From Candidatus Heimdallarchaeota archaeon (GTDB lineage Archaea; Asgardarchaeota; Heimdallarchaeia; Heimdallarchaeales; Heimdallarchaeaceae), in assembly GCA_016839875.1 (NCBI GenBank), contig JAEOTK010000150.1:1-25027 (forward strand): a DNA stretch of 25,027 bases, read 5' to 3'. This document shows positions 6,049 to 25,027 of the stretch, in pieces. Positions within the stretch are counted from its first letter, which is position 1. Every line of letters starts with the position of its first letter. The position numbers and the translations under genes were made by a program. Under the pieces are notes generated by a model. It did not search any database. It was not told where the DNA came from and saw only the letters and a list, made by a program, of their open reading frames with translations.

Positions 6049-7264
6049 TTCCTTCACCTCTATAATCAATTGAATGGATGTCCTTCAAAGATGAATACTT
6101 GTCTAAGTAATTGATTTTTACAAAAGGAGTGGTTTTCCAATTCTTCAAGTCTGATTTTTCAATAGTTTTTTCCCAATCCGTTTGATTTACTAAATTTGCA
6201 TAGATTGTATTCATTATTTTATCTAATGTCTCAGAGGATATCAAGCGAGTATCGTTATATCTCGTATCTGTTATGAAACCAAAGATTAAGAGTTCATCAG
6301 ATTCTTGTTTTTTGTATCCTAGAGTAAGATCTATTATGTCACTAGTTGCTTTTACTTGGAATTTAATTCTCGAAGGAATTGTGATGAAATTTTGTAGTTT
6401 CAAAGCAGAAAATTGGCTTATCGATGCTAGTAAATCTTTAGGAATATTAGAATTTTGCAAATATTTGAATAATTGAGATGGAGATTCGATGTTATTCTCT
6501 CCTACAATCTCTACCAAATCTTCTGGATATACATAAGAGATTTCCTCTAGATTCAATTCTGGAGTGATTAAGATTAAATCTCCCCCACATTCACATTTAA
6601 CTCCTTCAGGAGTTGTATCTTTTGAATATATCTTTTGGCACTCACCTATGCATTTCATTCGATCCTTGGTTATTTGTGCTCTTACTAAGAAAGCAGAAGT
6701 TATCATTGGTGTAATTTCTCTATCTGGACCTTTACCTCTTAATCTGCTTTCTTCTAGTATCTGCCAATTGTAGAAATTAGATAATTTTTCCAAATTTCTC
6801 TTAAGCTCAATTTTCTGATTTACATCAGCAATAATTTCAGATTCCTTTTGGAACTCTGTTCTTCTGAACACTCCAGTTAATGATTGACTAAGTGACTGTA
6901 TTTCTTTTGTTGATTCCTCAAGATTTAAATCTACAAAAGGTCCTACAATGACATTCAGAAGAGTAAACTCTTTGACACTATTCCTAAGAATGTAAATTTT
7001 ATTATTAATTTCTTCCTCGATTCTTTCAACATTTACAAAAGAGTATCTAGATCCTTTAAACAGGATATGTGTTTGAGAAAACATCTTATTAACATCTAGT
7101 TTTTCCAGATCCATTTCTCTCTTAGCTTTTACGGTTTCATCTGGAACTAGTTTCTTCCCCCCGATTATGTTGATTATCTGTGTATTAAGATTCAACTCTT
7201 TTTGTGGATAGTTGACTAGAAATAGATTTAGAGTATTGTCCTTTAAATGATGTTCATTTTCCAT
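6041..7264 (-). CDS. Hypothetical protein with central zinc knuckle
   Basis: Not recognised as a known family. It has 407 residues. A four-cysteine cluster, C205-x3-C209 ... C224-x-C226, sits in a short beta-rich segment and looks like a rubredoxin/zinc-ribbon knuckle. The region before it (~115-175) is helical and contains a basic segment (RLRGKG); the C-terminal ~150 residues are mixed alpha/beta. There is no membrane segment. The ATG is preceded by AAGGAG eight bases upstream and by an AT-rich promoter-like stretch around 7322-7345, so this gene probably leads the transcript. It overlaps the next gene by 8 bp, so the two products are probably made in a fixed ratio and may form a complex. 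Zinc binding is inferred from cysteine spacing only. Confidence 0.8.
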   Translation of the reverse strand: MENEHHLKDNTLNLFLVNYPQKELNLNTQIINIIGGKKLVPDETVKAKREMDLEKLDVNKMFSQTHILFKGSRYSFVNVERIEEEINNKIYILRNSVKEFTLLNVIVGPFVDLNLEESTKEIQSLSQSLTGVFRRTEFQKESEIIADVNQKIELKRNLEKLSNFYNWQILEESRLRGKGPDREITPMITSAFLVRAQITKDRMKCIGECQKIYSKDTTPEGVKCECGGDLILITPELNLEEISYVYPEDLVEIVGENNIESPSQLFKYLQNSNIPKDLLASISQFSALKLQNFITIPSRIKFQVKATSDIIDLTLGYKKQESDELLIFGFITDTRYNDTRLISSETLDKIMNTIYANLVNQTDWEKTIEKSDLKNWKTTPFVKINYLDKYSSLKDIHSIDYRGEGNE

Positions 7265-7396: not shown

Positions 7397-7912
7397 TTAT
7401 GGACTGTCCTGTTCAATTGCTATTTCAGCCATTTTCTTGAATAAAGGAAACAGATTAACATTATCCTTTGCAGAAACTTCAAAATATGTTGTATTTAATT
7501 TTTCAGCAAATTTCTCAGCTTCTTCAACAGAAACTTTTCTATCACTTTTTAAATCACTCTTATTTCCTACCAAAATAATAGGTATTTCTCCTACTCCCCT
7601 TCTTAGATTTTCTAGCCAAAAATCTAATTTTCCAAAGCTCTCTTGGCTAGTGATATCAAAAACAATGGCTGCAGCTAATGAACCTTGAAAATAAGTAGGC
7701 AAAACAGGTAAAAACCTTTCTTGAGAACCTGAATCTGCAATAATGAGTCTTATTTCTTCACCGTTGAAAATAGTGTTCCAGATAAGAAAATTGGCACCTA
7801 AGGTTGGTTGATGAACAGGGGGAAAAGAATTTTGAGCCTGCCTTAAGGCAAGAGAGGTTTTTCCTACTCCTGGATCACCACATAAAGATATCTTATAATT
7901 CCTAGGTACCAT
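7397..7912 (-). CDS. Ras/Rab-like small GTPase with altered G3 motif
   Basis: A 171-aa single-domain small GTPase. G1/Walker A is GDPGVGKTS (residues 12-20, K18). The switch I threonine is T37 in QPTLGANF. G4 is NKSD (117-120) and G5 is SAK (147-149). The G3 box reads ADSGSQERF: D60 and the catalytic-type glutamine Q64 are present, but the usual glycine of DxxG is serine (S63). There is no C-terminal cysteine motif for prenylation; the protein ends in QDSP, so membrane attachment of the usual kind is not expected. Such GTPases are abundant in Asgard genomes. It stands alone and is divergent from the small-protein/radical SAM pair. Family assignment is certain; partner and process are unknown. 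Confidence 0.93.
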   Translation of the reverse strand: MVPRNYKISLCGDPGVGKTSLALRQAQNSFPPVHQPTLGANFLIWNTIFNGEEIRLIIADSGSQERFLPVLPTYFQGSLAAAIVFDITSQESFGKLDFWLENLRRGVGEIPIILVGNKSDLKSDRKVSVEEAEKFAEKLNTTYFEVSAKDNVNLFPLFKKMAEIAIEQDSP

Positions 7913-12779: not shown

Positions 12780-12802
12780 TACGAAGTTTAAAACTAATAT
12801 TG

Positions 12803-13699
12803 ATGTTCCAAGTTATTACACGTCGCGATGATAACATTGGGTATCATATTTATCTATCTGACATCCCGAAAGAATTATCGGAAGATTCAATAGTTTTCAT
12901 GCCTGAATTATCTACTAAGGAACATCATCATGTTAAATATGTGTCAAAGTATACTCATAAATCTGGCAATATTATAATTAAATTAGTAAGAAGTGACGGG
13001 CTAGATCCTTTTGGAAGACCCAAATCACTATCCCACAGTCTAATCATTCCATCTGAAGAATACAATTTTAGCTCATTAAAGTACTATTCTTCTCCTATGA
13101 TTGAGCTAAGTCTTTTTGACAGCGCAGATTCTGAACCTGGATTATTAGACTTAAATCACTTCAAGAAAACTGAAAATAAAATACTTGAGACTATTGAAAT
13201 TAAATTATTAAGAGAGATAATTGTTGGAGCTATGATAGAGTCTAGAGTTATTCTACATCCAAATTTGGAATCTAGATCTCTTGTTGGATTAGCAAGCTTG
13301 ATCGATAAAGCAATTCCATATGAAGCATCATACGATTTTTCATTGATAACCTACTCTGATAAAAGCTGCAACCAATTTCTAATTCACAATATTCTCTACT
13401 TCTTTTCCAGGGAAAAAACTACAAAAGAAGGAATTGATGTTAAGAATATGAGCTCCAAAGTTAAGGAAATTGCTAAAGATGAAAAAGAATATTTAAACAA
13501 ATATATCGAAATGATAATCAGTGAGGATTATGAAAATCTTTTACAAGAACATGCAAGGTGGGTGATAGGCATGAATTATAATGATCATAAAGAACTTCAA
13601 AAACATTTTACTCGTAGATATCAACTTGATATTCCCTTCTCGAGAAGAAATAAGTTCCATGCGCAACTTGTTAAGTCTCTATCTATTTTGAATATGTGA
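12803..13699 (+). CDS. GTPase-associated protein 1 (GAP1)-like protein
   Basis: A 298-aa protein that I tentatively place with the GAP1 (GTPase-associated protein 1) families. The N-terminal ~160 residues contain a beta-rich segment ending in a DPFGRPKSLSHSLIIP motif (residues 68-83), very like the 'D-x-FGR...sHxLvl' signature of GAP1-N domains. Residues ~125-190 (LLREIIVGAMIES ... IPYEASYDFSLITY) resemble the middle GAP1-M region. The C-terminal ~100 residues are helical and charged. Bacterial members occur in conflict or signalling systems next to GTPases and may act as effectors or adaptors. Here the nearest GTPase gene is ~5 kb away, so the partner is uncertain. The ATG at 12803 was chosen over a TTG directly before it because of promoter spacing. 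Confidence 0.6.
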   Translation: MFQVITRRDDNIGYHIYLSDIPKELSEDSIVFMPELSTKEHHHVKYVSKYTHKSGNIIIKLVRSDGLDPFGRPKSLSHSLIIPSEEYNFSSLKYYSSPMIELSLFDSADSEPGLLDLNHFKKTENKILETIEIKLLREIIVGAMIESRVILHPNLESRSLVGLASLIDKAIPYEASYDFSLITYSDKSCNQFLIHNILYFFSREKTTKEGIDVKNMSSKVKEIAKDEKEYLNKYIEMIISEDYENLLQEHARWVIGMNYNDHKELQKHFTRRYQLDIPFSRRNKFHAQLVKSLSILNM

Positions 13700-13734: not shown

Positions 13735-14151
13735 CTAGAGCTTAAGTTTGTTGTATTTTTGAACCACATTGAAATACATATCTTCGCATTTCTCTTCAGA
13801 TAGTTCCATAATTCCCTTCTCCATTCTATTGGCGATTCTTTTTACAAGTTCTTTTAATCTATCTCGAAATTCTACCATTGGAAGAGTAAAATATACGTAT
13901 TTGTATCCTCCTCTTTCTAAGCTTACTTTTTCTTTTTTTACTGATCCAACATCCATCAATCTTTGAATAGATCTAACAATCGAAGCTCTGTCTTTTTTGA
14001 TAATTGCAGTGATTCCTTTAACATCAACTGGTTTATTATGATTAATGCACGCTAGTACTTCTAATTCATTCTCAGAAAGTCCAAAGAGAGCTCTAACAAT
14101 ATCAAAACAGCTTATATCGTCAGAATCAAAAGAAGAAAGAGGGAATGACAT
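13735..14151 (-). CDS. HTH (TrmB/MarR-like) transcriptional regulator, last gene of the sulfur-relay operon
   Basis: A 138-aa winged helix-turn-helix protein. Residues ~25-90 show the pattern LSENELEVLACINHNKPV, then KGITAIIKKDRASIVRSIQRL (recognition helix), then a wing with RGGYKYVYFTL. The C-terminal ~45 residues are a charged helix suitable for dimerisation. It resembles the small archaeal TrmB/MarR-like regulators. It starts 11 bp after the stop of the DsrE-family gene, with GAGTGG before its ATG, so it is the last cistron of the leftward operon. The position suggests autoregulation through the repeated CGGTTGT elements in the divergent promoter region, which would let it control both operons. 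A lone Cys near the N-terminus (C15 in DISCFD) and another at ~C122 could sense redox or persulfide, but this is speculative. Confidence 0.8.
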   Translation of the reverse strand: MSFPLSSFDSDDISCFDIVRALFGLSENELEVLACINHNKPVDVKGITAIIKKDRASIVRSIQRLMDVGSVKKEKVSLERGGYKYVYFTLPMVEFRDRLKELVKRIANRMEKGIMELSEEKCEDMYFNVVQKYNKLKL

Positions 14152-14162
14152 TTTTTTCCACT

Positions 14163-14534
14163 CTAGAAAGTGTATACTACATCTGCTTCGAGGGATTCTG
14201 TTACTAAGAACATTCCTCCGACGATATCATCAACTTCCTCTATGAAATCTTCACGTTTAAGATTATACATTTCTAGAACTGGGCTACAGACGTATATTTT
14301 TGCACCTACTTCTTTAGCTTCACGTAAGGTTTCGATGTAGGGATTCTTGCCTTCCATTGGAACTAAGTTTTCAGGTTCTCCTTTTTTCAAAAGCAATCCA
14401 GCAGACATTGTATACACCATTATAACTTCTGCATCAAGCATAGCTGCTAAAGATGCAAGATGTAAAGGCGGTTCAAGTCTTTCTTTGAATTCCTTTCCAT
14501 GGGTAACCACAAAAACTATTTTCTGTTCAGGCAT
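14163..14534 (-). CDS. DsrE-family sulfur-carrier protein (short)
   Basis: A 123-aa DsrE/DsrF-like protein. The fold signature is seen in KIVFVVTHGKE (first strand), HLASLAAMLDAEVIMVYTMSA, and the active-site strand AKIYVCSPVLEMYNLKREDF with a single cysteine C83 followed by the family's helix. DsrE-like proteins pass persulfide sulfur between TusA-type carriers and enzymes. The ATG at 14534 was preferred over a GTG at 14543 because AGGTGA lies five bases before it; the upstream gene ends 9 bp away. It sits between the longer DsrE-family gene and the HTH regulator. Family assignment is good; the acceptor is unknown. Confidence 0.85.
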   Translation of the reverse strand: MPEQKIVFVVTHGKEFKERLEPPLHLASLAAMLDAEVIMVYTMSAGLLLKKGEPENLVPMEGKNPYIETLREAKEVGAKIYVCSPVLEMYNLKREDFIEEVDDIVGGMFLVTESLEADVVYTF

Positions 14535-14543
14535 CACTTTCAC

Positions 14544-15017
14544 CTAGAAGTATAGTGTAATATCCGCATCTGAAGCAAATTCTAACATTGTAGCTGCTCC
14601 ACCAACTTCACATTCATCGATCAAATCTTTTCTTTTGATTTTCATAACATCCATGGTCATTTGACAAGCAATAAGCTTGACACCAGATTCAATTGCAATG
14701 TCCATTAATTCTTGTAGTTTTGCAACATTTGCACCTTTCATCCAACTTTTCATCATTGCTGTAGCCATATCAGTCATACCAGGAATCATCCCTACTATTT
14801 GTGGTATCGGCATTGGCATAGCTGTTTGACCAACGGGAGTTACTTTGAGTTTGTTAAGTTTCTTCTTCTTTAGCATGTTTAATCCAAAGAATGTGAAGAA
14901 TATACCTACTTCATAATCCATCGCTGCTGCAGTAGTAGCTAGGATTAATGGTGGGTATGCGCCTGCTATATCTGCTTTTGAAGCTATCATAGCTATTCGT
15001 TTTTTCTTTTCGCTCAT
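14544..15017 (-). CDS. DsrE/DsrE2-like sulfur-carrier protein
   Basis: A 157-aa protein of the DsrE/DsrF/DrsH-like group, closest in layout to DsrE2. The N-terminal strand KRIAMIASKAD is followed by ILATTAAAMDYEVGIFFTFFG. A Met-rich insert (PMPIPQIVGMIPGMTDM) typical of DsrE2 comes next, then LIACQMTMDVMKIKRKDL carrying C118, the conserved cysteine. A second cysteine is C136 (DECEVGG). In sulfur-metabolising prokaryotes, DsrE2 pairs with TusA and moves sulfane sulfur. AGGTGA precedes the ATG at 15017 by five bases, so this start was chosen over the GTG at 15026. The gene follows the second TusA by 9 bp and precedes the shorter DsrE-like gene. The role in sulfur transfer is inferred from family and context. 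Confidence 0.87.
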   Translation of the reverse strand: MSEKKKRIAMIASKADIAGAYPPLILATTAAAMDYEVGIFFTFFGLNMLKKKKLNKLKVTPVGQTAMPMPIPQIVGMIPGMTDMATAMMKSWMKGANVAKLQELMDIAIESGVKLIACQMTMDVMKIKRKDLIDECEVGGAATMLEFASDADITLYF

Positions 15018-15026
15018 TTTTTTCAC

Positions 15027-15266
15027 CTATTTAATTCTCTTAATGATATAGCGGTAAATTCCGCTTTCTTCTGAGTTAGCAATAAGCTCATTTCCGGTAG
15101 ATCTTGTCCATGCTTGAAAATCTGCAACTGAACCAGGATCTGTTGAGAGAACTTCAATGTGTTCTCCTAATGAAATTTCCATAATTGCTTTTTTAGTTTT
15201 CAGAATCGGAAGAGGACAGCTTAATCCCTTAGCATCAAGAGTTTTAGCAATTTTTATATCACTCAT
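15027..15266 (-). CDS. TusA-family sulfurtransferase (second copy)
   Basis: A 79-aa TusA/SirA/YeeD-family protein. The signature is LSCPLPILKTKKAI with catalytic C17 in the CPxP motif near the start of the first helix. The rest shows the beta-alpha-beta fold ending YRYIIKRIK. The family carries a persulfide on this cysteine and hands it to DsrE-type partners or to target enzymes. The ATG at 15266 was chosen for its AGGTGA site; a GTG at 15275 is less likely. It lies 11 bp after the SQR-like gene and 9 bp before the DsrE2-like gene. It differs from the first copy mainly in the motif (CPLP against CPGP), so the two may serve different partners. Confidence 0.92.
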   Translation of the reverse strand: MSDIKIAKTLDAKGLSCPLPILKTKKAIMEISLGEHIEVLSTDPGSVADFQAWTRSTGNELIANSEESGIYRYIIKRIK

Positions 15267-15277
15267 TTTTTTCACCT

Positions 15278-16423
15278 TTATAATCGTCCTTTAATCAAAA
15301 ACATGAAATAAGCGTACTTGAACGCTTTCTTGAATAAACCAAAAAGAAATGAGGAATGTAATCCATATTTCTTTGGTGGATATTCATAACTGAAATGTAA
15401 TAACATTGACTTGTGGAAGGTTGTTATAATAAAGCAAATTGTTAATCCATTGTACCTAGCTTTTGGTTCTTTCCCTTTGAGTTGTGCTAAAAGATTCTTC
15501 ACTAATACATTTGAAGAGAAATGTGAGACAGCTCCTGATTTAGAAACTGGAAGATTAGTTGCGTCTCCAATTGCGTAGATATTGTTGTATTCTGTGTGTT
15601 TCATTGTATGACGATCAGTTGTAACCCATCCTTCTCTATCTCCAAGTCCAGAATCTTTGATAACATCATGACCTTCATGAGGAGGTACAATTATCAAACC
15701 TTCGTATTTTATCTCCTCTCCTTCTAAAGATAGAACTTTGTTGTTCTCTGTATCAACTGTTTCGAAATTAAAGAATGAAGTAAATTTGATGTTTCTTTTA
15801 GCAAAAAGTTTTTCTACTCTCTTAGCAGGTTCAGCCATTGTGAAAGCCCTTGATAATGGGTAGAGAAACTTAATTGTAGATTTGTGTCTTATTCCTCTCT
15901 TACGTAAATATTTGTCTAACAAGAATGCGAATTCAACTGGGGCTGGTGGGCATTTATATGGTACAGTTGTTGGAGTAATAACAATTGTTCCTCCATCAAA
16001 CGAATGTAGTTTTTCTTTGAGGTGGATAACTCCCTCTTTTGTGTAGAACTCACAAACATTATCTGCTGCGCAATATGCGTCAATTTGTTCATGTGCTATT
16101 CTAGCACCAGTTGCTAAGATTAAATAATCATAAGAAATAGTATCTTCATTCTCTAAAGTTACGATATTTTTTTCAGGATCTATCTTTGTTGCTGAGGATT
16201 GTATCCAATTAACCTTTCTGCTTAGTAATTTAGATATGGGTTTTAAGAGAGTCGAAATGGGTTTGTCTTGAAAAACCCAGAATAAATACTCAGGTTCGTA
16301 GATATTTTCTTCCTTAGGTTCGATTAATGTGATTTTGACTTTTTTTCTGTTTACCTTTCGCGCCAAATGATTAGTTGTAGCTAAGCCAGAAAAACCTCCA
16401 CCTATTATTACTATATTTCTCAT
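15278..16423 (-). CDS. SQR-like FAD-dependent pyridine-nucleotide-disulfide-type oxidoreductase
   Basis: A 381-aa flavoprotein of the sulfide:quinone oxidoreductase/flavocytochrome c sulfide dehydrogenase group. The N-terminal dinucleotide motif is IVIIGGGFSGLATTNHL (residues 4-20), the acidic end of beta-2 is E35, and the second FAD motif is YAIGDATNLP (283-292). Cysteines lie where SQR has its sulfide-handling residues: C118/C124, C158 in YKCPPAPVEF, and C330 in LTICF. The C-terminus is hydrophobic/amphipathic (FLFGLFKKAFKYAYFMFLIKG), as in membrane-docking SQRs. It probably oxidises sulfide or transfers polysulfide; the electron acceptor is unknown. The start at 16423 follows the TusA stop by 10 bp; an upstream in-frame start would overlap TusA. 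The operon context with TusA and DsrE genes supports a sulfur role. Confidence 0.85.
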   Translation of the reverse strand: MRNIVIIGGGFSGLATTNHLARKVNRKKVKITLIEPKEENIYEPEYLFWVFQDKPISTLLKPISKLLSRKVNWIQSSATKIDPEKNIVTLENEDTISYDYLILATGARIAHEQIDAYCAADNVCEFYTKEGVIHLKEKLHSFDGGTIVITPTTVPYKCPPAPVEFAFLLDKYLRKRGIRHKSTIKFLYPLSRAFTMAEPAKRVEKLFAKRNIKFTSFFNFETVDTENNKVLSLEGEEIKYEGLIIVPPHEGHDVIKDSGLGDREGWVTTDRHTMKHTEYNNIYAIGDATNLPVSKSGAVSHFSSNVLVKNLLAQLKGKEPKARYNGLTICFIITTFHKSMLLHFSYEYPPKKYGLHSSFLFGLFKKAFKYAYFMFLIKGRL

Positions 16424-16433
16424 TTTAGAGCCT

Positions 16434-16673
16434 TCAGTGTAGTTTTTTAACGATGTAACGATCGAAACCGTCTTCATTAATTAGTTCAGATAATTCGTGT
16501 TTTGCTTTATCAATCCAAGCAGGAACATCTACTCTTGTTCCTTCATCAGAGCTAAGTAAAGCAATAAATTCACCAACTTCTGCTTGACGAATTGCTTTGA
16601 TTAATTCCATCATTGGTCCTGGACAAAAAGCTCCTCTTGCATCAACTTCTATTGCTATCTCATAATCAGTCAT
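16434..16673 (-). CDS. TusA-family sulfurtransferase (first gene of the sulfur-relay operon)
   Basis: A 79-aa TusA-family protein with catalytic C17 in AFCPGPMMELIKAI (CPGP) and the usual alpha/beta sandwich ending FDRYIVKKLH. It has the same length as the second TusA downstream. The ATG at 16673 was chosen because AGGTGA lies directly upstream; a longer version starting at 16721 would run through the putative TATA-to-start region and has no Shine-Dalgarno. It leads the leftward operon TusA - SQR-like - TusA - DsrE2-like - DsrE-like - HTH. Its promoter faces away from the hdrC promoter and carries the inverted CGGTTGTGA repeat. Confidence 0.92.
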   Translation of the reverse strand: MTDYEIAIEVDARGAFCPGPMMELIKAIRQAEVGEFIALLSSDEGTRVDVPAWIDKAKHELSELINEDGFDRYIVKKLH

Positions 16674-16690
16674 TTTTTCACCTTGTTGTT

Positions 16691-16726
16691 CGGTTGTGAC
16701 GAGTTTTGTCTTTTGGCTCACAACCG
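16691..16726. repeat. Inverted repeat CGGTTGTGA, candidate operator of the sulfur-relay promoter
   Basis: A perfect 9-bp inverted repeat: CGGTTGTGA at 16691-16699 and TCACAACCG at 16718-16726, separated by 18 bases. On the leftward transcript one arm abuts the TATA box and the other lies just beyond the expected start site. Binding there would block transcription. A further copy of the half-site occurs at 16811-16819. Confidence 0.6.
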
Positions 16727-16877: not shown

Positions 16878-17570
16878 ATGATAGCAGTATGGATTAGTTT
16901 AATAGTCACTGCCATATTAGTTGCTGGCTCAATTTCCTTACGCATTATTTCCAAAGAGGGAGAGGAAGGAAGAATTATCAGACCTAACGAGAAATTATCT
17001 GATGAATTCATGGAGGATTTAGCACTAGTTCCTGGTGGCGACAAAATTAAAGAATGCATACAATGTGGCATTTGTTCTGCTTCTTGTCCTGTTTCTTTTG
17101 CAATGGATTATACTCCAAGACAGATATGGGAACTTCTAAGATCTGGACAGTTAAAAAAAGCACTCAACAGTCACACTGTATGGTTGTGCTCTTCCTGCTA
17201 CAAATGTGCTGTAAGATGTTCTACTGGCATTCCTTTTACAGATGTTATGTATGGACTCAAGCGTTTAGGTGTAGAGAAGAAAATGAATCTAAAAGGTCTT
17301 AGTGGCCCAGTCTGGGGTCGTACCTTTTTAAATAATGTTCGACGCTATGATAGAATTACTGACATCTTCGTAATGATCATGTTTATGGTAAAGAAGCAAC
17401 CTTTCAGAATACTTTCAATTCTTCCTGAATCTGTTGGTATGGTAATCAAAGGAAGAATTCCCTTTAAGAATCTTATTATGCTAATTCCTAAAACGATTAA
17501 GTCCTTTTTCACTAGAAGCGACATCAAGAAGATGATGAAATGGATAGATAAGAACGTGGAGACAGATTAA
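16878..17570 (+). CDS. hdrC: HdrC-like iron-sulfur subunit with N-terminal membrane helix
   Basis: A 230-aa HdrC-type protein. Two [4Fe-4S] motifs are complete: C60-x2-C63-x2-C66-x3-C70 and C104-x2-C107-x2-C110-x3-C114. HdrC transfers electrons from HdrA to the catalytic HdrB. Unlike typical soluble HdrC (~185-195 aa), the first ~22 residues are a hydrophobic helix (AVWISLIVTAILVAGSI), and the C-terminal ~95 residues form an extended, basic, partly hydrophobic tail. Membrane anchoring is therefore possible. The ATG at 16878 has GGTGA four bases upstream. It is the first gene of the rightward operon; hdrB starts one base after its stop. Substrate specificity is not fixed by this subunit. Confidence 0.9.
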   Translation: MIAVWISLIVTAILVAGSISLRIISKEGEEGRIIRPNEKLSDEFMEDLALVPGGDKIKECIQCGICSASCPVSFAMDYTPRQIWELLRSGQLKKALNSHTVWLCSSCYKCAVRCSTGIPFTDVMYGLKRLGVEKKMNLKGLSGPVWGRTFLNNVRRYDRITDIFVMIMFMVKKQPFRILSILPESVGMVIKGRIPFKNLIMLIPKTIKSFFTRSDIKKMMKWIDKNVETD

Positions 17571-17571
17571 A

Positions 17572-18468
17572 ATGGCTGAAGATGTAAAAGACAAAGGTTA
17601 TACTTATTTCCCTGGATGTGCTTTGGAAGGACTTCAAGAACCTTATAAAAAATCTACAGAAGCAGTAGCTAAAGAACTCGGAATAAAATTAAATGAGTTG
17701 AAGAACTGGAACTGTTGCGGGACTCCTTCGGTTATCGGTGTAGATGAAATCAAAGCTCTTGCTCTATCTGCCAGAAATCTTGCTTTAGCTGCAAAAGAAG
17801 GAGATCAAATTGTTAGCCCTTGTAACACTTGTTTTGGTACTTTGAAAAAAGTGAATAGATACATGGATTATAACAAGGAAATCTATAATGCAATAAATGG
17901 TTCTCTTAATGCAGCTGGCTTATCATATGAACCTTACACTGTTAAAGTGAGACATTTCGTGGATATCTTAGTTAATGATTATGGGATAGAAGAAATCAGA
18001 AAAAGAGTAAAAAGACCTCTTACAGGTTTCCGAGTTGTACCATTCTATGGGTGCCATTTCTCTAGACCTTTTGGTGAACATGATGATATGGAGAACCCAA
18101 GTAAAATGGACGAATTGATCAAAATTTCTGGTGCTGAATGGGTAGATTATCCCATGAAGTTTACATGTTGTGGAGCTACTCTTCCTGTAACAGATCAAGA
18201 AGTTGGTTATAGACTCATACATGAAATTCTCAGATCAGCAAAGGAAGTTAAAGCTGATTTCATTATAACTGCATGTCCATTGTGTCAAACAAACTTAGAG
18301 ATGTTCCAACGAGTAGCTGGAAATATGTATGGAGGTAAACACCATATACCAATTCTGTACGTTACTCAATTAGTAGGTTATGCTCTTGGGCTTTCAGTAA
18401 AGGAACTAATGATAGATAAAACACTAGTTAAGCCAAAAAGACTTATAGAAAAAAGTGAGGTGGTCTAA
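17572..18468 (+). CDS. hdrB: HdrB, catalytic CCG-domain subunit
   Basis: A 298-aa HdrB with two complete cysteine-rich CCG domains: C16, C48/C49, C84-x2-C87 and C161, C199/C200, C235-x2-C238. In HdrB these ligate the two non-cubane [4Fe-4S] clusters that cleave a heterodisulfide. All ten cysteines are present, so catalysis on a disulfide- or persulfide-like substrate is expected. CoM-S-S-CoB is the substrate only in methanogens, and nothing else here points to methanogenesis. It is translationally linked to hdrC (1-bp gap) and to the HdrA-NuoE gene (TAATG overlap, with GAGGTGG upstream). A sulfur substrate delivered by TusA/DsrE is an inference from the divergent operon. Confidence 0.93.
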   Translation: MAEDVKDKGYTYFPGCALEGLQEPYKKSTEAVAKELGIKLNELKNWNCCGTPSVIGVDEIKALALSARNLALAAKEGDQIVSPCNTCFGTLKKVNRYMDYNKEIYNAINGSLNAAGLSYEPYTVKVRHFVDILVNDYGIEEIRKRVKRPLTGFRVVPFYGCHFSRPFGEHDDMENPSKMDELIKISGAEWVDYPMKFTCCGATLPVTDQEVGYRLIHEILRSAKEVKADFIITACPLCQTNLEMFQRVAGNMYGGKHHIPILYVTQLVGYALGLSVKELMIDKTLVKPKRLIEKSEVV

Positions 18469-19751
18469 TGACATCTGAAGCAGATCCAAGAATTGGAGTT
18501 TTTGTTTGTAAATGTGGAAAAAATATTGCAGCAAAAGTCGCAGTCAAAGAAGTAGCAGATTTTGCAAAAACTCTAGATAATGTAGAATTCAGTCAAGTGA
18601 ATACTTTTACTTGTTCAGCAGTTGGACAAAATGCGATCAAAGATGCAGTAAAGGAACATAATCTAGATCGAGTTGTAGTAGCAAGTTGCTCTCCAACAAT
18701 GCATGAGAGTACCTTTCAAGCAGCAACTGAAGAAGCAGGATTGAACAAATATCAATTCCAAATGGCAAACATTAGAGAATTTTCCTCATGGGTTACTAAA
18801 GATCCAACTGAAGCAACTAATAAAGCTAAGAAAATAGTTACTGGTGCTGTAAAACGAGTTGCATTTCATGAACCGCTTGAAGAAGTAATTGTCCCAGTAA
18901 ATCCAAATACCTTAGTTATTGGCGGTGGAATCGCTGGAATATCAGCAGCTCTAAAAATCGCAGATGCAGGTCATAATGTTATCTTAGTTGAAAAAGAACC
19001 CTCCATCGGTGGAAGAATGGCTCAACTTGATAAAACATTTCCAACACTAGATTGTGCTGCCTGCATTTTATCCCCACGAATGGTGGATGTTGGAAAACAT
19101 CCAAACATAGAATTAATGGCTTACTCTGAAGTTGTTGCAGTTGATGGATATATTGGTAATTTTAATGCTAAAATCAAAAACAAAGCAAAATCAGTAGATG
19201 AAGAAAAATGTACTAGCTGTGGCGATTGCTGGGAAAATTGTCCTGTAAGATATACTGCTTATACTGAACCTGCAAAAATTGTTCCTGCATTGCTTTACGA
19301 TGAAAAGACATTCCTCGATAAAATCATCAACAAATACAAAGATAGACGAGGAGCTATTATGCCTATTCTTGAGGCAATAAATAGTGAGTATAGATATCTT
19401 CCTGAAGAGGGTTTGAAATATGTCGCAGTTCAAATGGATTATCCATTGAGTTCGATTTATAGAATTGCCACCTTCTATAACGCTTACAGCTTAGAACCAA
19501 GAGGAGAGCATCTGATAAGTGTCTGTATGGGAACAACCTGTCATGTTCGAGGAGCTCCAAGACTTGTTGAAAGACTAAAAAGTGAGCTTAAGATTGACAT
19601 TGGTCAAACAACTGATGATGGTAAATTTACTCTAGAAACAGTCCGATGTTTAGGTTGTTGTAGTTTAGCTCCAGTGATTACGATTGATGGTGAAGCGTTC
19701 GGTAATATGAAACCGAGTAGAATTCCAAGGGTGCTTGATAAATATGAGTGA
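18468..19751 (+). CDS. HdrA N-terminal half fused to NuoE
   Basis: A 427-aa fusion. Residues 1-~262 are the N-terminal half of HdrA: an N-terminal cysteine domain (C14, C16, C49, C74), the FAD dinucleotide motif VIGGGIAGISAA (150-161), the HdrA signature TLDCAACILSPRM with C196/C199, and the first cluster of the inserted ferredoxin domain, C248-x2-C251-x2-C254-x3-C258. HdrA then stops at CPVRY. Residues ~275-427 are a full NuoE (24-kDa, thioredoxin-like [2Fe-2S]) domain with C353-x4-C358 and C394-x3-C398. The remainder of HdrA is found on the gene at 21651. There is no frameshift. The stop overlaps the NuoF start by 8 bp. A flavin-bifurcation role is inferred from HdrA. Confidence 0.92.
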   Translation: MTSEADPRIGVFVCKCGKNIAAKVAVKEVADFAKTLDNVEFSQVNTFTCSAVGQNAIKDAVKEHNLDRVVVASCSPTMHESTFQAATEEAGLNKYQFQMANIREFSSWVTKDPTEATNKAKKIVTGAVKRVAFHEPLEEVIVPVNPNTLVIGGGIAGISAALKIADAGHNVILVEKEPSIGGRMAQLDKTFPTLDCAACILSPRMVDVGKHPNIELMAYSEVVAVDGYIGNFNAKIKNKAKSVDEEKCTSCGDCWENCPVRYTAYTEPAKIVPALLYDEKTFLDKIINKYKDRRGAIMPILEAINSEYRYLPEEGLKYVAVQMDYPLSSIYRIATFYNAYSLEPRGEHLISVCMGTTCHVRGAPRLVERLKSELKIDIGQTTDDGKFTLETVRCLGCCSLAPVITIDGEAFGNMKPSRIPRVLDKYE

Positions 19752-21651
19752 TACAATACCAACTAACATCAAAGCTCTTAGAACTAAAGGAGAAGAAACT
19801 CTCTATCCTGATAAACCAAAAATTGGTATTAGTATGGCTTCTTGTGGTTTAGCTGCAGGTGCTGAGAAGATCTATGAAATAATCGAAAAAGAACTATTGG
19901 ATTTAGAACTTGATTGGATTATTTCTAAGACTGGTTGTCCAGGATATTGTCAAAAAGAACCTTTATTATACTATCATGCCCCTGGGAAAGAGAAAATTTA
20001 CTTCGGGGATTTGACTGAAAAGAAAGCCAAAGAATTGATTAAGGAATTATCTGAAAATAAAGTGGATAGAGATTTTGCTGCATGGAAAATCATGTCAGAT
20101 GTTACTATTGATGAAAAGACATTATTCATCAGCGAAGAGACAGAAATAGCAGATGTTCCTTTGTACCAAGAATATGATTTCTTTGAGAAACAACACAAAA
20201 TTGCTCTTAGGAATTGCGGCTTTATTGATCCTCAGAGTATTGCAGAATATATTGCAAAAGGAGGATATGTAGCTTTCCAAAAAGCCTTGAAAATGAAACC
20301 TAAAGAAGTAATTGATTCAGTTAAGAAATCTGGACTTCGTGGCAGAGGTGGAGGAGGATTTCCTACAGGATTGAAATGGGAACTCTGTTCCAAAGAAACT
20401 TCAGATATCAAATATATTATTTGTAATGCAGATGAAGGAGATCCTGGTGCATATATGGATCGCAGTATTCTAGAAGGTGATCCTCACTCTATAATTGAAG
20501 GGATGCTAATTGGTGCTTATGGAATTGGAGCTAATGAAGGCTACATCTACGTAAGGGCAGAATATCCTTTAGCTATTGAACTTCTTGATATAGCAATAGA
20601 ACAAGCACGTGAAAATGGTTTTCTCGGAGATAATATCCTCAATTCTGGTTTTAATTTTGATATCAAGCTTGCACATGGTGCAGGTGCATTCGTATGTGGA
20701 GAAGAAACAGCCTTGATCGCTTCAATTGAAGGTAGGCCTGTTGAACCAAGAATTAGACCTCCATTTCCATCTGAGTCTGGTCTGTGGGAAAAACCTACAA
20801 ATATAAACAATGTTGAGACTTGGGCTAATATTCCACCTATTCTATTGAAAGGCCATGAATGGTATTCCTCGTTAGGAACAGAAACAAGTAAGGGAACCAA
20901 AGTATTTTCACTAGTAGGAAAAATCAACAATACCGGACTAGTTGAGGTTCCAATGGGAATTACACTACGAGAGATTATCTATGATGTAGGTGGAGGAATA
21001 ATTGATGATAAGAAATTCAAAGCTATTCAAACAGGTGGTCCATCAGGTGGCTGTCTTCCTGAAAGCCATATCGATTTACCAGTGGATTATGAGAGTCTCA
21101 AAGAAGCTGGTTCAATAATGGGCTCTGGAGGAATGATAGTAGTAGATGAGGACACTTGTATGGTGGATCTTGCGAAATTCTTTATCGATTTCACTAGGGA
21201 TGAATCATGTGGTAAATGTGTTTCTTGTCGTGATGGACTAGATGCTTGTCACGAAATACTAGATAAAATAACTGAAGGAAAAGCTTCTTTAGAGGATCTT
21301 ACTTATCTAGAAGAACTCAGTCAATCGATAGTAGATTTTTCAATGTGTGGATTAGGAACCACAGCTCCAAATCCTGTATTGACAACTCTTCGATACTTCA
21401 AAGATGAGTACATTGCGCATATTGAGAATAAAGAATGTCCAGCAAAGGTATGCAAAGCTTTGATCACATATGAGATAATCAAAGACAACTGTGTTGGTTG
21501 TCAAGCATGTGCAAGATTGTGTCCAGAAAATGCAATTAAAGGACAAAAAGATAAAGTTCACAAGATTAACCAAGAACTCTGTATTAAGTGTGGAGTTTGT
21601 TTTGATACGTGTCGATATGATGCGATTCTGATAAGGAGTGGTGATAAATAA
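19744..21651 (+). CDS. nuoF: NuoF/HoxF-like NADH-binding subunit with N-terminal Trx-like and C-terminal ferredoxin domains
   Basis: A 635-aa NADH-oxidising subunit. An N-terminal thioredoxin-like segment (~1-105) has C34, C65 and C69. The FMN/NAD core follows: GLRGRGGGGFPTGLKWE (198-214), NADEGDPGAYMDR (228-240) and GAGAFVCGEETALIASIEG (312-330). The N3-type [4Fe-4S] site is C489-x2-C492-x2-C495 plus C535. A C-terminal 2x[4Fe-4S] ferredoxin has C583/C586/C589/C593 and C613/C616/C619/C623. This layout matches HydB/HoxF/HndC proteins of bifurcating enzymes (~600-640 aa) rather than complex I NuoF (~430 aa). The ATG at 19744 was chosen over a TTG at 19735; it overlaps the previous stop. It provides the NAD(H) site for the complex. 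Confidence 0.95.
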   Translation: MSDTIPTNIKALRTKGEETLYPDKPKIGISMASCGLAAGAEKIYEIIEKELLDLELDWIISKTGCPGYCQKEPLLYYHAPGKEKIYFGDLTEKKAKELIKELSENKVDRDFAAWKIMSDVTIDEKTLFISEETEIADVPLYQEYDFFEKQHKIALRNCGFIDPQSIAEYIAKGGYVAFQKALKMKPKEVIDSVKKSGLRGRGGGGFPTGLKWELCSKETSDIKYIICNADEGDPGAYMDRSILEGDPHSIIEGMLIGAYGIGANEGYIYVRAEYPLAIELLDIAIEQARENGFLGDNILNSGFNFDIKLAHGAGAFVCGEETALIASIEGRPVEPRIRPPFPSESGLWEKPTNINNVETWANIPPILLKGHEWYSSLGTETSKGTKVFSLVGKINNTGLVEVPMGITLREIIYDVGGGIIDDKKFKAIQTGGPSGGCLPESHIDLPVDYESLKEAGSIMGSGGMIVVDEDTCMVDLAKFFIDFTRDESCGKCVSCRDGLDACHEILDKITEGKASLEDLTYLEELSQSIVDFSMCGLGTTAPNPVLTTLRYFKDEYIAHIENKECPAKVCKALITYEIIKDNCVGCQACARLCPENAIKGQKDKVHKINQELCIKCGVCFDTCRYDAILIRSGDK

Positions 21652-23426
21652 TGGTCAAAATAACAATAAATAACCAAGAATGCGAAATAGAAGAAGGAAA
21701 AACTATCCTTGAAGCTGCTCAAGCAATGGGTTTAGAGATACCTACTCTCTGTTATCATAAAGCTCTTAGTCCTTATGGAGCATGCAGAATCTGCACAGTA
21801 GAGATTGAACTAAATGAACGAACAATGTTTCAAACCTCATGTCAATATCTTGTAGAAGAAGGTATGAACATTCAGACAGAAAGCGAGAGAGTAGTCAATG
21901 GTCGTAAGAAGATGATTGAACTTTTACTTGCACGTGCTCCAGAAGCAGAAGATATTCTAGACCTTGCATATAAATACGGTGTAAAAGAAACAAGATTTAC
22001 CAAAAATTTTGATGATGTTTGCATCCTATGCGGTCTCTGTGTTCGAGTCTGTCATGAAAGAATGGGTTTCAAAGCTATCGAATTCATTAATAGAGGAATC
22101 GATAGAAAAGTCAGTTTACCTTTCGAAGATTTCCATGAAGTATGTAGAACCTGTGGTTCTTGTTCAACATTCTGTCCAACAGGAGCAAAAGCGGTGCAAT
22201 TGGAAAATCTCACTCATTATACTCCAAGACCAATCTTATCAGAATTTGATGAAGGTTTAGCAACTAGACCTGCAATATATACACCATTTCCACAAGCAGT
22301 ACCTAAGATTCCTGTTATAGATAGAGATAATTGCATACATTTCCAAACTGGTGAATGTAAAATATGTGAAACTGTATGTGAACCTAAAGCGATAGATTAT
22401 GAGCAAGAAGATGAAATTGTGGAGAGAGAAGTAGGAGCAATAATTGTAACAACAGGTTTTGATCCTTTCGACCCAAATCGACTTCCGCAATATGGTTACG
22501 GAAAATATCCCAATGTAATCACTTCTTTAGAATTCGAGCGAATATCCAGTGCAAGTGGACCAACAGAAGGAGAAATCATCTTCCCTGGAGTTGATAAGAT
22601 TGAAAGCGCTGCGATACTTCACTGTATCGGAAGTAGAGATGAAAATACAAACAGATACTGTTCCAGACTCTGTTGTATGAATGCTCTAAAAGCTGCAAAT
22701 CTCATAAGAGATAAATTACCGGATTCTCATGTCTATGAGTTTTATATAGATATTAGAGCCGCTGGTAAAGGATATGAAGAATATTATCAGAAAATGCTTA
22801 GAAGCGATATAAGAATCATCAGAGGTAAAGTAGCTGAAATCACTAATATTCCAGATTTACCTGAAGACGAAGGAAGATTAACAGTAGTAGCAGAGGATAC
22901 TCTTCTTGGAGCAATTCTGAGAGTGCCAGTTGATCTTGTAATTCTGATGGTTGGAATTGAACCTAAGAAAGATGCTAGAGAGTTAGCACATATACTCCAT
23001 TTACCATGTACAGAGGAAGGATTTTATAATGAAAAGCATCCAAAGCTAGCTCCAACTGAAACTGTTGTAGAAGGAATTCATATAGCTGGTGCATGTCAAT
23101 TTCCAAAAGATGTACCTGATTCTGTAGCACAAGCAGAATCTGCTGCAGCAGCAGTTCTTTCAAAGATAGTAAGAGGAGAATATATTACTGAACCGACGAA
23201 AGCTGAAATAGAGGACGATCATTGCTCAGGATGTAGAAACTGTATAGGATTATGTCCATATTTAGCTATTAGCTTTGATGAGGAAAAGAATATCGCGAAA
23301 ATAGACTCAGCTTTATGTCAAGGATGTGGAGTCTGTGTAGCCAGCTGTCCTTCAGGTGCAATTATCCATAAAGGATATACGGACAAACAGATTTTCGCTG
23401 AAATTGAAGGAGTATTGGAGAGGTGA
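21651..23426 (+). CDS. NuoG-like N-terminal module fused to HdrA C-terminal half
   Basis: A 591-aa fusion. Residues 1-~80 are a plant-type [2Fe-2S] ferredoxin (C34, C45, C48, C64), as in NuoG/HoxU. Residues 120-180 hold two [4Fe-4S] motifs (C124/C127/C130/C134 and C165/C168/C171/C175). The H-x3-C-x2-C-x5-C cluster normally found between these modules is absent. From ~residue 197 (SEFDEGLATRPAIYTPFPQ) HdrA resumes: the rest of the inserted ferredoxin domain (C228, C236, C239, C243), the second part of the FAD/thioredoxin-reductase domain (VGAIIVTTGFDPFDP; C325, C337, C341, C342; HIAGACQFPKDVPD) and the C-terminal ferredoxin (C525/C528/C531/C535 and C556/C559/C562/C566). The start codon overlaps the NuoF stop by one base. 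Confidence 0.93.
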   Translation: MVKITINNQECEIEEGKTILEAAQAMGLEIPTLCYHKALSPYGACRICTVEIELNERTMFQTSCQYLVEEGMNIQTESERVVNGRKKMIELLLARAPEAEDILDLAYKYGVKETRFTKNFDDVCILCGLCVRVCHERMGFKAIEFINRGIDRKVSLPFEDFHEVCRTCGSCSTFCPTGAKAVQLENLTHYTPRPILSEFDEGLATRPAIYTPFPQAVPKIPVIDRDNCIHFQTGECKICETVCEPKAIDYEQEDEIVEREVGAIIVTTGFDPFDPNRLPQYGYGKYPNVITSLEFERISSASGPTEGEIIFPGVDKIESAAILHCIGSRDENTNRYCSRLCCMNALKAANLIRDKLPDSHVYEFYIDIRAAGKGYEEYYQKMLRSDIRIIRGKVAEITNIPDLPEDEGRLTVVAEDTLLGAILRVPVDLVILMVGIEPKKDARELAHILHLPCTEEGFYNEKHPKLAPTETVVEGIHIAGACQFPKDVPDSVAQAESAAAAVLSKIVRGEYITEPTKAEIEDDHCSGCRNCIGLCPYLAISFDEEKNIAKIDSALCQGCGVCVASCPSGAIIHKGYTDKQIFAEIEGVLER

Positions 23427-23431
23427 AGACA

Positions 23432-23908
23432 ATGGTAGTAACAAATGAAAAATCAATTGAAAAAACAGATTGGGAACCAAAGATAGTTGGCTTCCTTTGC
23501 AAGTGGTGCTCTTATGCTGGAGCAGATTTAGCAGGTATAAGCAGAATTAATTATCCCCCCAATTCTATCTTCATCAAAGTTCCATGTACTGGTCGAGTTG
23601 ATCCAACCTTCGTTTTGAAAGCTTTTGCTGATGGAGCTGATGCAGTATTCATTTCTGGTTGTCACCCTGGAGATTGTCATTATATCGAAGGCAATTATAA
23701 AACTATGAGAAGATATGAAATCCTCAAAGAAACCTTGAAACAGCTAGGTATAGATGAAAGAAGATTCCAACTCACTTGGATTTCAGCATCTGAAGCTCAG
23801 AAATTGAAGGAATTTATCACAGATATCACGACAACGATTCGAGAATTAGGTCCTATACAATTGCCTACGTTAGCACCTTTAGAAAAGGAGGAGATTCAAG
23901 ATGCCTGA
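23432..23908 (+). CDS. mvhD: MvhD-like [2Fe-2S] electron-transfer subunit
   Basis: A 158-aa MvhD-type protein. Conserved cysteines are C23-x2-C26, C52, and C77-x4-C82 in FISGCHPGDCHYIEGN. In methanogens MvhD links the MvhAG hydrogenase to HdrA and docks on the HdrA C-terminal ferredoxin domain. Here the gene directly follows the fusion that carries that domain, consistent with the same contact. The ATG at 23432 has GAGGTGA five bases upstream; an in-frame GTG at 23423 would lie within that site. The gap to the previous stop is 5 bp, and mvhG starts 8 bp before this gene's stop. Confidence 0.93.
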   Translation: MVVTNEKSIEKTDWEPKIVGFLCKWCSYAGADLAGISRINYPPNSIFIKVPCTGRVDPTFVLKAFADGADAVFISGCHPGDCHYIEGNYKTMRRYEILKETLKQLGIDERRFQLTWISASEAQKLKEFITDITTTIRELGPIQLPTLAPLEKEEIQDA

Positions 23909-24866
23909 GAAATTGAAAATAGCTTTCTATTGGGCTGCTAGCTGTGGAGGTTGTGAAGTTACAGTGTTAGATATAGATGAGAAAATTTTGGATGTTGTAG
24001 CAGTAGCAGATATTGTTTTCTGGCCTGTTGCAATTGATATCAAATACAATGATGTAAGAGCTATGGAAGACAAAAGTATAGATGTAACTTTCTTTAATGG
24101 TTCAATTAGAACAGAGGAAAATGCAGAATTAGCTCATTTGCTGAGAGTAAAATCTAAGACTTTGGTAGCTTTTGGTTCATGTTCTTGCTTCGGAGGAGTA
24201 GTTGGTTTAGGAAACCTATCAACCAAAGAAGAGTTATTACATAGGGCATATATCACAAGTGATTCGACAGATAATCCTGAACAAATTAGACCTCAGCTTC
24301 ATTACAAGGAAGTTCATCTCCCAGATGTACTCCCATCTAATTATGCTTTAAATCAAGTTGTCGATGTTGATTACTATCTCCCTGGTTGTCCTCCTAAAGA
24401 TACTCTTGTGTGGAATGCAGTAGAAGCAATAGCTTCTGGAAAACTCCCTCCAAAAGGATCAGTTCTAGCTCCAAATCTAACAGTTTGCCATGATTGTCCA
24501 AGAGAGAAACATGATGAAAGGAAGATCAAAGAGTTTAGAAGAATCTACGAATTTCAACCAAATGAAACAGATTGTCTTTTAGAACAAGGTATTATCTGTA
24601 TGGGTCCTGCAACACGTTCTGGATGTGATGCCTCATGTATATCTGTGAACATGCCTTGTCGTGGATGTATGGGGCCAACAGATCAAGTATTTGATCAAGG
24701 TGCAAAGATGATTTCTGTTTTAGGTGGTTTAATAGATTCTGAAGATCCTGAGGAAGTGAAAGAGATTGTTAGGACAATTGTTGATCCTGTTGGAACGCTC
24801 TATTTCTTTGGAGTATCCAAATCTTTGATAAAGCAAAGTGGTGTTAAAAAGGAGGTAAAACGATGA
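23901..24866 (+). CDS. mvhG: [NiFe]-hydrogenase small subunit (MvhG-like, group 3)
   Basis: A 321-aa hydrogenase small subunit. Proximal [4Fe-4S] ligands are visible in SCGGCE (C15/C18), FGSCSCFGG (C94) and PGCPP (C163). The medial and distal clusters are served by C196/C199, C225, C233, C242, C246, C253 and C256. There is no Tat signal peptide, so the enzyme is cytoplasmic, as expected for a group 3 (F420-non-reducing, Mvh-type) hydrogenase. AGGAGGAGA precedes the ATG. The end overlaps the large-subunit start (ATGA). It feeds electrons from H2 to MvhD, or takes them in reverse. Confidence 0.95.
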   Translation: MPEKLKIAFYWAASCGGCEVTVLDIDEKILDVVAVADIVFWPVAIDIKYNDVRAMEDKSIDVTFFNGSIRTEENAELAHLLRVKSKTLVAFGSCSCFGGVVGLGNLSTKEELLHRAYITSDSTDNPEQIRPQLHYKEVHLPDVLPSNYALNQVVDVDYYLPGCPPKDTLVWNAVEAIASGKLPPKGSVLAPNLTVCHDCPREKHDERKIKEFRRIYEFQPNETDCLLEQGIICMGPATRSGCDASCISVNMPCRGCMGPTDQVFDQGAKMISVLGGLIDSEDPEEVKEIVRTIVDPVGTLYFFGVSKSLIKQSGVKKEVKR

Positions 24867-25027
24867 CAGAAAAAAATGTTAAACGCATAGTTATTGATCC
24901 AATAACAAGGTTAGAAGGTCATGCAAAGATAGATATTATTCTGACCGATTCTGGAAAAATAAAAGATGTATACTTACAAGTGCCAGAATTTCGAGGATTT
25001 GAAAGATTTTGTGAGGGCAGAAGAGTA
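24863..25027 (+). CDS. mvhA: [NiFe]-hydrogenase large subunit (MvhA-like), 5' part only
   Basis: The first 55 codons of a [NiFe]-hydrogenase large subunit, cut by the right edge of the window. The start MTEKNVKRIVIDPITRLEGH contains the family's N-terminal RxxEGH motif. The first CxxC nickel-ligand pair should follow just outside the window (the visible part reaches RGFERFCEGR). GGAGGT lies six bases before the ATG, which overlaps the mvhG stop by 4 bp. It is the catalytic H2-activating subunit. Whether all four nickel ligands are intact cannot be seen. Confidence 0.93.
   Translation, partial: MTEKNVKRIVIDPITRLEGHAKIDIILTDSGKIKDVYLQVPEFRGFERFCEGRRV

What the first reader, a model, noticed from the sequence alone, without database searches (positions are those of the whole stretch)
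18468..23426. HdrA split in two with a complete NuoE-NuoF-NuoG' module nested inside it
The gene at 18468 ends its HdrA part right after the first ferredoxin cluster (C248-C258, CPVRY) and continues as NuoE. The next gene is NuoF. The gene at 21651 begins as NuoG-N and at residue ~197 resumes HdrA (SEFDEGLATRPAIYTPFPQ) with nothing obviously lost. The NADH-dehydrogenase cassette thus sits exactly in the loop between the two cluster motifs of HdrA's inserted ferredoxin domain. I know of HdrA-NADH dehydrogenase associations (FlxABCD-HdrABC), but not of this nested split. It implies an obligate heteromer in which the HdrA fold is rebuilt from two chains.
Basis: partly seen in the sequence, partly recalled or inferred. 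Interest (0 to 1): 0.95.

Follow-up and report, generated by a model that had tools for sequence, protein, structure and literature searches.

The report
Electron-splitting enzyme rebuilt from two chains
In a likely Asgard archaeon and in members of eight bacterial phyla, the electron-splitting protein HdrA is encoded as two separate halves around a set of NADH-enzyme parts, and the halves are predicted to rejoin into one working unit that would wire hydrogen, a disulfide, NADH and ferredoxin together.

Summary
The 18468 product is HdrA residues 1-262 plus NuoE; the 21651 product is NuoG-N plus the rest of HdrA. Joined, the halves align end to end with solved HdrA (E 1e-205). It is no chimera: 120 listed homologues of each product, 50-96% identical, and both halves in 14 bacterial loci from eight named phyla. 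In 5 of 9 such genomes the split HdrA-N is the only one found. A rare natural single chain (2 of 120 listed) carries NuoG-N inside the same loop and is predicted to keep the HdrA fold. The cut puts the FAD motif on one chain and both bifurcation-marking residues on the other. NuoF has the ligands of bifurcating Bfu cores. Best reading: HdrA's low-potential port is likely hard-wired into a Bfu-type NADH/ferredoxin module. Relatives are known (Bam-Bfu; HdrA with GltD/NfnB in the same domain), but ten full-text searches gave no description of this arrangement in what I read. Assembly, activity and direction are untested.

The parts
16878..17570 (+). HdrC-like protein, two 4Fe-4S motifs
17572..18468 (+). 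HdrB-like protein with two cysteine-rich CCG domains
18468..19253 (+). HdrA N-terminal half (residues 1-262 of the 427 aa product)
18921..18938 (+). GGGIAG dinucleotide-binding motif of the HdrA FAD site, chain 1
19062..19064 (+). C199, counterpart of HdrA Cys197 (ligand to the partner HdrA's N-terminal cluster in the known dimer)
   Evidence: role from PMC9012536 passages
19209..19241 (+). Motif I of the inserted ferredoxin domain (C248, C251, C254, C258), chain 1
19317..19745 (+). NuoE/BfuC-like domain (residues 284-426)
19735..21651 (+). NuoF of bifurcating BfuB type; B2-cluster positions C475, T513, H562, C568, C573
21651..22220 (+). NuoG-N/BfuA-like domain (residues 1-190): one 2Fe-2S and two 4Fe-4S motifs
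22233..23426 (+). HdrA C-terminal half (residues 195-591 and stop of the 591 aa product)
22332..22379 (+). Motif II of the inserted ferredoxin domain (C228, C236, C239, C243), chain 2
22536..22538 (+). E296, counterpart of HdrA E356
22689..22691 (+). K347, counterpart of HdrA K409
23423..23908 (+). MvhD
23901..24866 (+). MvhG/VhuG, small subunit of a [NiFe] hydrogenase
24863..25027 (+). Start of mvhA, [NiFe] hydrogenase large subunit, cut by the window end

Best explanation
The operon encodes an HdrA cut inside its inserted ferredoxin domain, with NuoE fused to the first half and NuoG-N to the second, and the two chains are predicted to re-form one electron-bifurcating HdrA whose low-potential port would feed straight into a Bfu-type NADH/ferredoxin module. 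Shown by sequence: the halves, the fusions, the unbroken HdrA alignment, the cluster motifs, the FAD motif on chain 1, the two bifurcation-marking residues on chain 2, and the Bfu ligand positions in NuoF. Inferred: that the halves assemble and share two [4Fe-4S] clusters and the FAD. [quoted passage not shown] one branch goes to HdrBC and a disulfide, the other leaves by the inserted ferredoxin to soluble ferredoxin. Here that exit likely runs on through NuoG-N and NuoF to NAD+ and ferredoxin, or in reverse. This would put two bifurcation sites in series and link H2, a disulfide, NAD(H) and ferredoxin. Direction in the cell and the disulfide are unknown.
Against: No multimer model, no biochemistry. 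L137 has the second chain without a first half in 19 kb; L014 lacks NuoE/NuoF beside it and L017 lacks NuoF; in L006, L008, L010 and L013 about 3-4 kb separate HdrA-N from NuoE, and in L002 about 3 kb separate NuoF from NuoG-HdrAc, so the parts need not always be adjacent. r 0.725 is below the 0.89-0.97 of equal-sized intact subsets, and shared ancestry alone also gives correlation. The 591 aa product modelled alone is weak, pLDDT 65, under 50 at residues 119-222 (21 rows). The published guess for Bam-Bfu has Bfu as donor to HdrA, not as exit.
Confidence: 0.66

Rival explanations
1. The HdrA fold is rebuilt from two chains, but the NuoEFG module feeds electrons from NADH (with or without ferredoxin) to the FAD as a mid-potential donor, as proposed for Bam-Bfu and for GltD-bearing type III HdrA. 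The inserted ferredoxin then works as an entry, not an exit.
For: Published proposals for Bam-Bfu (PMC9304861 section 5) and type III HdrA (PMC12054007 passages).
Against: A mid-potential donor, MvhDG with the start of mvhA, is already in the operon, and in solved HdrA the inserted ferredoxin is the low-potential exit (PMC9012536 passages).
Confidence: 0.2
2. The halves assemble, but NuoEF is a simple, non-bifurcating NADH site that lets NADH replace soluble ferredoxin.
For: Not every NuoF homologue bifurcates (PMC9304861; PMC5861303 passages).
Against: The window NuoF keeps the B2 positions with His, and B3/B4 motifs; non-bifurcating homologues are said to lack B2-B5.
Confidence: 0.09
3. The two HdrA pieces are relics: NuoE and NuoG carry leftover HdrA domains that no longer make an HdrA.
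For: No biochemistry exists for the split form.
Against: Cluster motifs kept in 119-120 of 120 listed homologues; E296 and K347 invariant in 21 of 21 aligned rows; only HdrA-N found in 5 of 9 genomes.
Confidence: 0.04
4. Assembly chimera or frameshift.
For: Reads were not available.
Against: P0121 (96%, 8 member sequences, 3 contigs) and P0001 (93%, 7 members) carry the same fusions; same architecture in bacterial loci of eight named phyla.
Confidence: 0.01

Closest known systems
HdrABC-MvhADG of methanogens (5odc, 8rvu)
   Same: HdrA sequence end to end, HdrB, HdrC, MvhD, MvhG and start of MvhA in one operon
   Different: HdrA there is one chain and its inserted ferredoxin gives electrons to soluble ferredoxin; no NuoEFG
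Bfu family (HydABC-like; PMC9304861)
   Same: NuoF with B2 positions and B3/B4 motifs, NuoE and NuoG-N partners
   Different: No Bfu described in the sections read has BfuA and BfuC fused to halves of HdrA
Bam-Bfu, class II benzoyl-CoA reductase
   Same: HdrA module plus BfuABC in one complex, two bifurcation sites proposed
   Different: HdrA is a separate module there, with a tungsten enzyme as output (PMC9304861)
Type III HdrA / HdrA 9-11 (GltD or NfnB domain inserted; PMC12054007, PMC9012536)
   Same: An NAD(P)H module inserted in the same ferredoxin domain, between motif I and motif II
   Different: One chain; GltD, not NuoEFG; in the bacterial copies here it sits after the QAVP stretch, 23 or more residues past motif I
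FlxABCD-HdrABC
   Same: NADH-linked HdrABC
   Different: Separate Flx proteins and an uncut HdrA (recalled, and cited in papers seen); here NuoEFG domains fused to a cut HdrA

Membership tests
HdrA | Full HdrA sequence with FAD motif, both inserted-ferredoxin motifs and C-terminal ferredoxin | tested here: met
   joined halves align with 8rvu_a 10-653 and 5odc_A 3-650; motifs
HdrA | E356 and K409 (5odc numbering) that mark bifurcating HdrA | tested here: met
   map to E296 and K347 of chain 2
HdrA | Single polypeptide | tested here: not met
   two ORFs with a third between them
HdrA | FAD-based bifurcation activity | not testable with these tools
   needs enzyme assays
Bfu (BfuBC core) | BfuB domain set (51K, SLBB, NADH_4Fe-4S, Fer4) and a BfuC thioredoxin-like 2Fe-2S domain | tested here: met
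   Pfam matches of NuoF and of product 1
Bfu (BfuBC core) | B2-cluster ligands including the conserved His | tested here: met
   C475, T513, H562, C568, C573 by alignment to 7t2r_B
Bfu (BfuA type 2) | Clusters A1, A2, A4; no A3, no A5 | tested here: inconclusive
   2Fe-2S and two 4Fe-4S motifs, no HxxxCxxCxxxxxC (0 of 120); that this His motif is A3 is recalled
Type III HdrA | GltD inserted in a one-chain HdrA | tested here: not met
   NuoEFG domains and a cut HdrA instead
Bam-Bfu | HdrA as a module separate from BfuABC | tested here: not met
   HdrA halves fused to NuoE and NuoG-N
Bam-Bfu | Tungsten benzoyl-CoA reductase subunits in the operon | tested here: inconclusive
   none among the ORFs scanned, but the operon runs off the window
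FlxABCD-HdrABC | flxABCD genes beside an uncut hdrA | tested here: not met
   NuoE/F/G domains and a cut HdrA; the definition is recalled
Group 3c Mvh hydrogenase | mvhD, mvhG, mvhA together | tested here: met
   mvhD and mvhG whole, mvhA only its first 55 codons; active-site cysteines not seen

The most novel reading that the evidence does not exclude
A natural tandem bifurcation machine: a first bifurcation site whose FAD and two [4Fe-4S] clusters are built from two chains (HdrA), wired through its low-potential port into a second, unrelated bifurcation site (Bfu FMN plus B2 cluster). One soluble complex would tie four couples together: H2, a disulfide, NAD(H) and ferredoxin. The loop between the two ferredoxin motifs of HdrA is a docking slot into which evolution has put unrelated NAD modules (GltD, NuoEFG), in one chain or in two.
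Probability: 0.45. Interest if true: 0.87.

Novelty: new variant of a known kind. Interest (0 to 1): 0.74.

Why it matters
HdrA and the NuoF/Bfu type are two of the known kinds of electron-bifurcating enzyme. A conserved form that joins both through a fixed port would make two bifurcation steps in series directly testable; in the papers I read this is proposed for benzoyl-CoA reductase and for some multi-HdrA complexes. It would also show that a bifurcating flavin site can be assembled from two gene products. Several database records name the first chain as NADH-oxidoreductase subunit E, so surveys that count full-length HdrA may miss it. Where it is the only HdrA, models of hydrogen, NADH and ferredoxin balance would need changing.

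Tried and rejected
Chimera or frameshift: rejected. Asgard-only feature: rejected. Plain NuoF: rejected on ligand positions. Short HdrA-N pieces of 195-213 aa (L011, L015, L024, L030, L051, L070) as a second kind of split: rejected; the stop is an in-frame TGA at the Cys197 position, found in 7 loci (these and L135), all seven stops being TGA, so selenocysteine is likely.

Single origin of the split: not settled. In both half trees the split rows need at least 3 changes on starred branches, which may be one gain and losses. These were quick trees; long branches were flagged for P0126 and L017 (HdrA-N) and for P0009 and L017 (HdrA-C), with a warning that P0009 and the window join as long branches. 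Left out of the trees: L016 (an N run in its N-terminal part; a NuoG-like remainder before HdrA-C), loci where HdrA-N and HdrA-C are on different ORFs without NuoG-N (L030, L051, L070), and partial loci (L028, L056, L063, L077). L007 and L012 are only in the HdrA-C tree.

More Asgard genomes: not reached. No genome is held for the window, and the one genome-contig scan kept 80 loci whose titles name no Asgard. The phylum counts scored at most 4 candidates a genome and are lower bounds. Alignment A3 held a mis-chosen short row and was not used. The model of the 591 aa product alone was not searched further.

'Not in print' rests, over open-licence papers only. Of papers I saw: PMC9304861 sections 4 (part 1 of 2), 5 (whole), 6 (part 1 of 2), abstract and passages; passages only of PMC12054007, PMC9012536, PMC11237513, PMC10553843, PMC7325909, PMC5736913, PMC10327494, PMC11291895, PMC9723677, PMC6037941, PMC5861303; all others in the listings only. 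[quoted passage not shown] it could be a relative and I did not check.
Full report
WHAT IS THERE. The window holds a tight + strand operon: hdrC, hdrB, a 427 aa product, a 638 aa product, a 591 aa product, mvhD, mvhG and the start of mvhA. The closest named relatives are Asgard: P0121, 96% to the 427 aa product, 'Asgard group archaeon', and P0002, 78% to the 591 aa product, 'Candidatus Heimdallarchaeaceae archaeon'. The source is thus likely an Asgard archaeon; this is inference from neighbours.

THE SPLIT. The 427 aa product aligns from residue 6 to 261 with HdrA of known structure and is NuoE from 284. The 591 aa product is NuoG-N to about 190 and HdrA from there on. Residues 1-262 plus 195-591 give one unbroken match to 8rvu_a 10-653 (E 1.1e-205), and to the four other HdrA sequences found at E 1e-100 or better. 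In 111 of 112 intact HdrA, and in 5odc, 36 residues separate motif I from motif II; the window keeps 31 of these on chain 2 (S197-227) and has PVRYT on chain 1. The cysteines of motif I are on chain 1 (C248, C251, C254, C258), those of motif II on chain 2 (C228, C236, C239, C243). In two-cluster ferredoxin folds each cluster usually takes three ligands from one motif and one from the other (established knowledge, recalled), so both clusters would be shared. The GGGIAG motif is on chain 1 (residues 152-157). E356 and K409, described as telling bifurcating from non-bifurcating HdrA (PMC12054007 passages), map to E296 and K347 of chain 2, both invariant in the 21 rows.

THE CASSETTE. NuoF is not the short respiratory form. 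Its best solved relatives are NfnB 9n5u_B and NiFe-Bfu 7t2r_B, and the B2-cluster ligands given for NiFe-Bfu map to C475, T513, H562, C568 and C573. PMC9304861 states that non-bifurcating homologues lack clusters B2-B5 and the His, and that Thr replaces one Cys in about two-thirds of the family. NuoG-N has a 2Fe-2S motif (120 of 120 listed homologues), two 4Fe-4S motifs (119 of 120) and no HxxxCxxCxxxxxC motif (0 of 120). Its best solved match is subunit A of an electron-bifurcating tungsten aldehyde oxidoreductase, 9mqx_A.

HOW WIDESPREAD. Each protein search scored about 8000 candidates and listed 120. The 120 listed homologues of the 591 aa product are 50-93% identical: 117 of 583-619 aa, one 510 aa partial, and two of 870 and 883 aa. 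The 120 listed homologues of the 427 aa product are 421-456 aa, 51-96% identical over 94-100% of it. By eye, at least 13 pairs from the two lists share the same longest-contig length. Of the 80, 16 (L001-L015, L017) encode NuoG-N and HdrA-C in one ORF. In 14 of these 16 another ORF carries HdrA-N without HdrA-C; in L007 and L012 the contig ends before that place. None of the 16 loci has HdrA-N and HdrA-C in one ORF. The order HdrA-N, NuoE, NuoF, NuoG-HdrAc holds in 12 of the 14; L014 lacks NuoE and NuoF beside it, L017 lacks NuoF. In L006, L008, L010 and L013 about 3-4 kb of other sequence separates HdrA-N from NuoE, and in L002 about 3 kb separates NuoF from NuoG-HdrAc. HdrA-N is fused to NuoE in L002, L003 and L017 and is a separate ORF in the other 11; in 9 of these it ends 19 to 64 residues after motif I, and in L011 and L015 it holds an in-frame TGA. 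The phyla named for loci with both halves are Chloroflexota, Planctomycetota, Armatimonadota, Zixiibacteriota, Acidobacteriota, Ignavibacteriota, Calditrichota and Fidelibacterota (metagenome-bin labels). L003, a Phycisphaerae bin, has the window's order from hdrC to mvhG.

In genomes drawn evenly, 5 of 294 of the phylum of G003 (G003, G048, G108, G123, G154) and 3 of 301 of the phylum of G001 (G001, G317, G479) have a match that runs from the start of NuoG-N into HdrA-C, that of G123 being cut by its contig end; these are lower bounds, since at most 4 candidates a genome were scored. Seven regions of the six genomes not already in hand were read. HdrA-N was found in 5 of 7: L131, L136, and in L133-L135 a minimal form without the N-terminal domain, recognised by reading the translation (in L135 with a TGA). 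It was not seen in L132, whose contig starts inside what reads as the end of nuoF, nor in L137 (19 kb). In L131 the C-terminal ferredoxin part of NuoF is replaced by a GltD-like part. In L132, L133, L134 and L137 the NuoG-HdrAc chain continues into a second HdrA.

MECHANISM. [quoted passage not shown] The parts for all these ports are present here, mvhA only as its start. What is new is the last port: NuoE is fused to one strand of the inserted ferredoxin and NuoG-N to the other, and the second 4Fe-4S motif of NuoG-N (C165-C175) ends about 20 residues before HdrA resumes. The economical reading is that the low-potential exit likely passes electrons to the NuoG-N clusters, then NuoF, then NAD+ and ferredoxin, reversibly. 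Every step after the sequence facts is inferred. The rival, Bfu as donor to HdrA, is the published proposal for Bam-Bfu. The disulfide is unknown; the TusA/DsrE genes next door on the other strand are a lead only.

WHAT IS KNOWN. HdrA with a GltD or NfnB domain in the same ferredoxin domain is described as type III and as HdrA 9-11 (PMC12054007, PMC9012536 passages), so the slot is a known insertion point. Bfu with an HdrA module is described as Bam-Bfu. HdrA fusions in Asgard archaea are described as HdrA-HdrA and with MvhD (PMC11237513 passages). Ten full-text searches gave no description of HdrA split around NuoEFG in what I read. A 2021 review of HdrA modules was not held.

VERDICT.

Noticed in passing
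L011, L015, L135 (split HdrA); L024, L030, L051, L070 (HdrA without NuoG): In-frame TGA at the Cys197-equivalent position of HdrA (TFPT[LN]DCxx-TGA-IL) in 7 loci, likely selenocysteine; 9sfi_A prints X at the same place. HdrA selenoproteins are mentioned for Asgard archaea (PMC11291895, PMC9723677 passages).
   Followed up: partly
window 13735-16721, - strand: Divergent cluster beside hdrC: two TusA, DsrE, DsrE2, a sulfide-dehydrogenase-like FAD protein and a TrmB-type regulator. It might point to a sulfur carrier as the disulfide substrate.
   Followed up: no
L131: Split-HdrA operon in which NuoF is fused to a GltD-like part in place of its C-terminal ferredoxin (1071 aa).
   Followed up: partly
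L132, L133, L134, L137: NuoG-N and HdrA-C continue in one ORF into a second HdrA (1079-1504 aa ORFs), a tandem-HdrA form of the nested split; L133-L135 have a minimal HdrA-N before NuoE.
   Followed up: partly
P0324, P0331, P0339, P0343, P0348, P0352: One-chain HdrA of about 1114 aa with GltD in the inserted ferredoxin (two read in full), among relatives of bacterial HdrA; ORFs of 1120-1180 aa with an HdrA-C match recur in the genomes.
   Followed up: partly
window 7397-7912 (-) and 27-1070 (+): A Ras-family small GTPase and a protein with a PCI domain and a weak C2H2 zinc-finger match, in keeping with an Asgard source.
   Followed up: no
window 4759-6069 (-), 6041-7264 (-), 12800-13699 (+): Three ORFs of 299-436 aa without a Pfam match above cut-off.
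   Followed up: no
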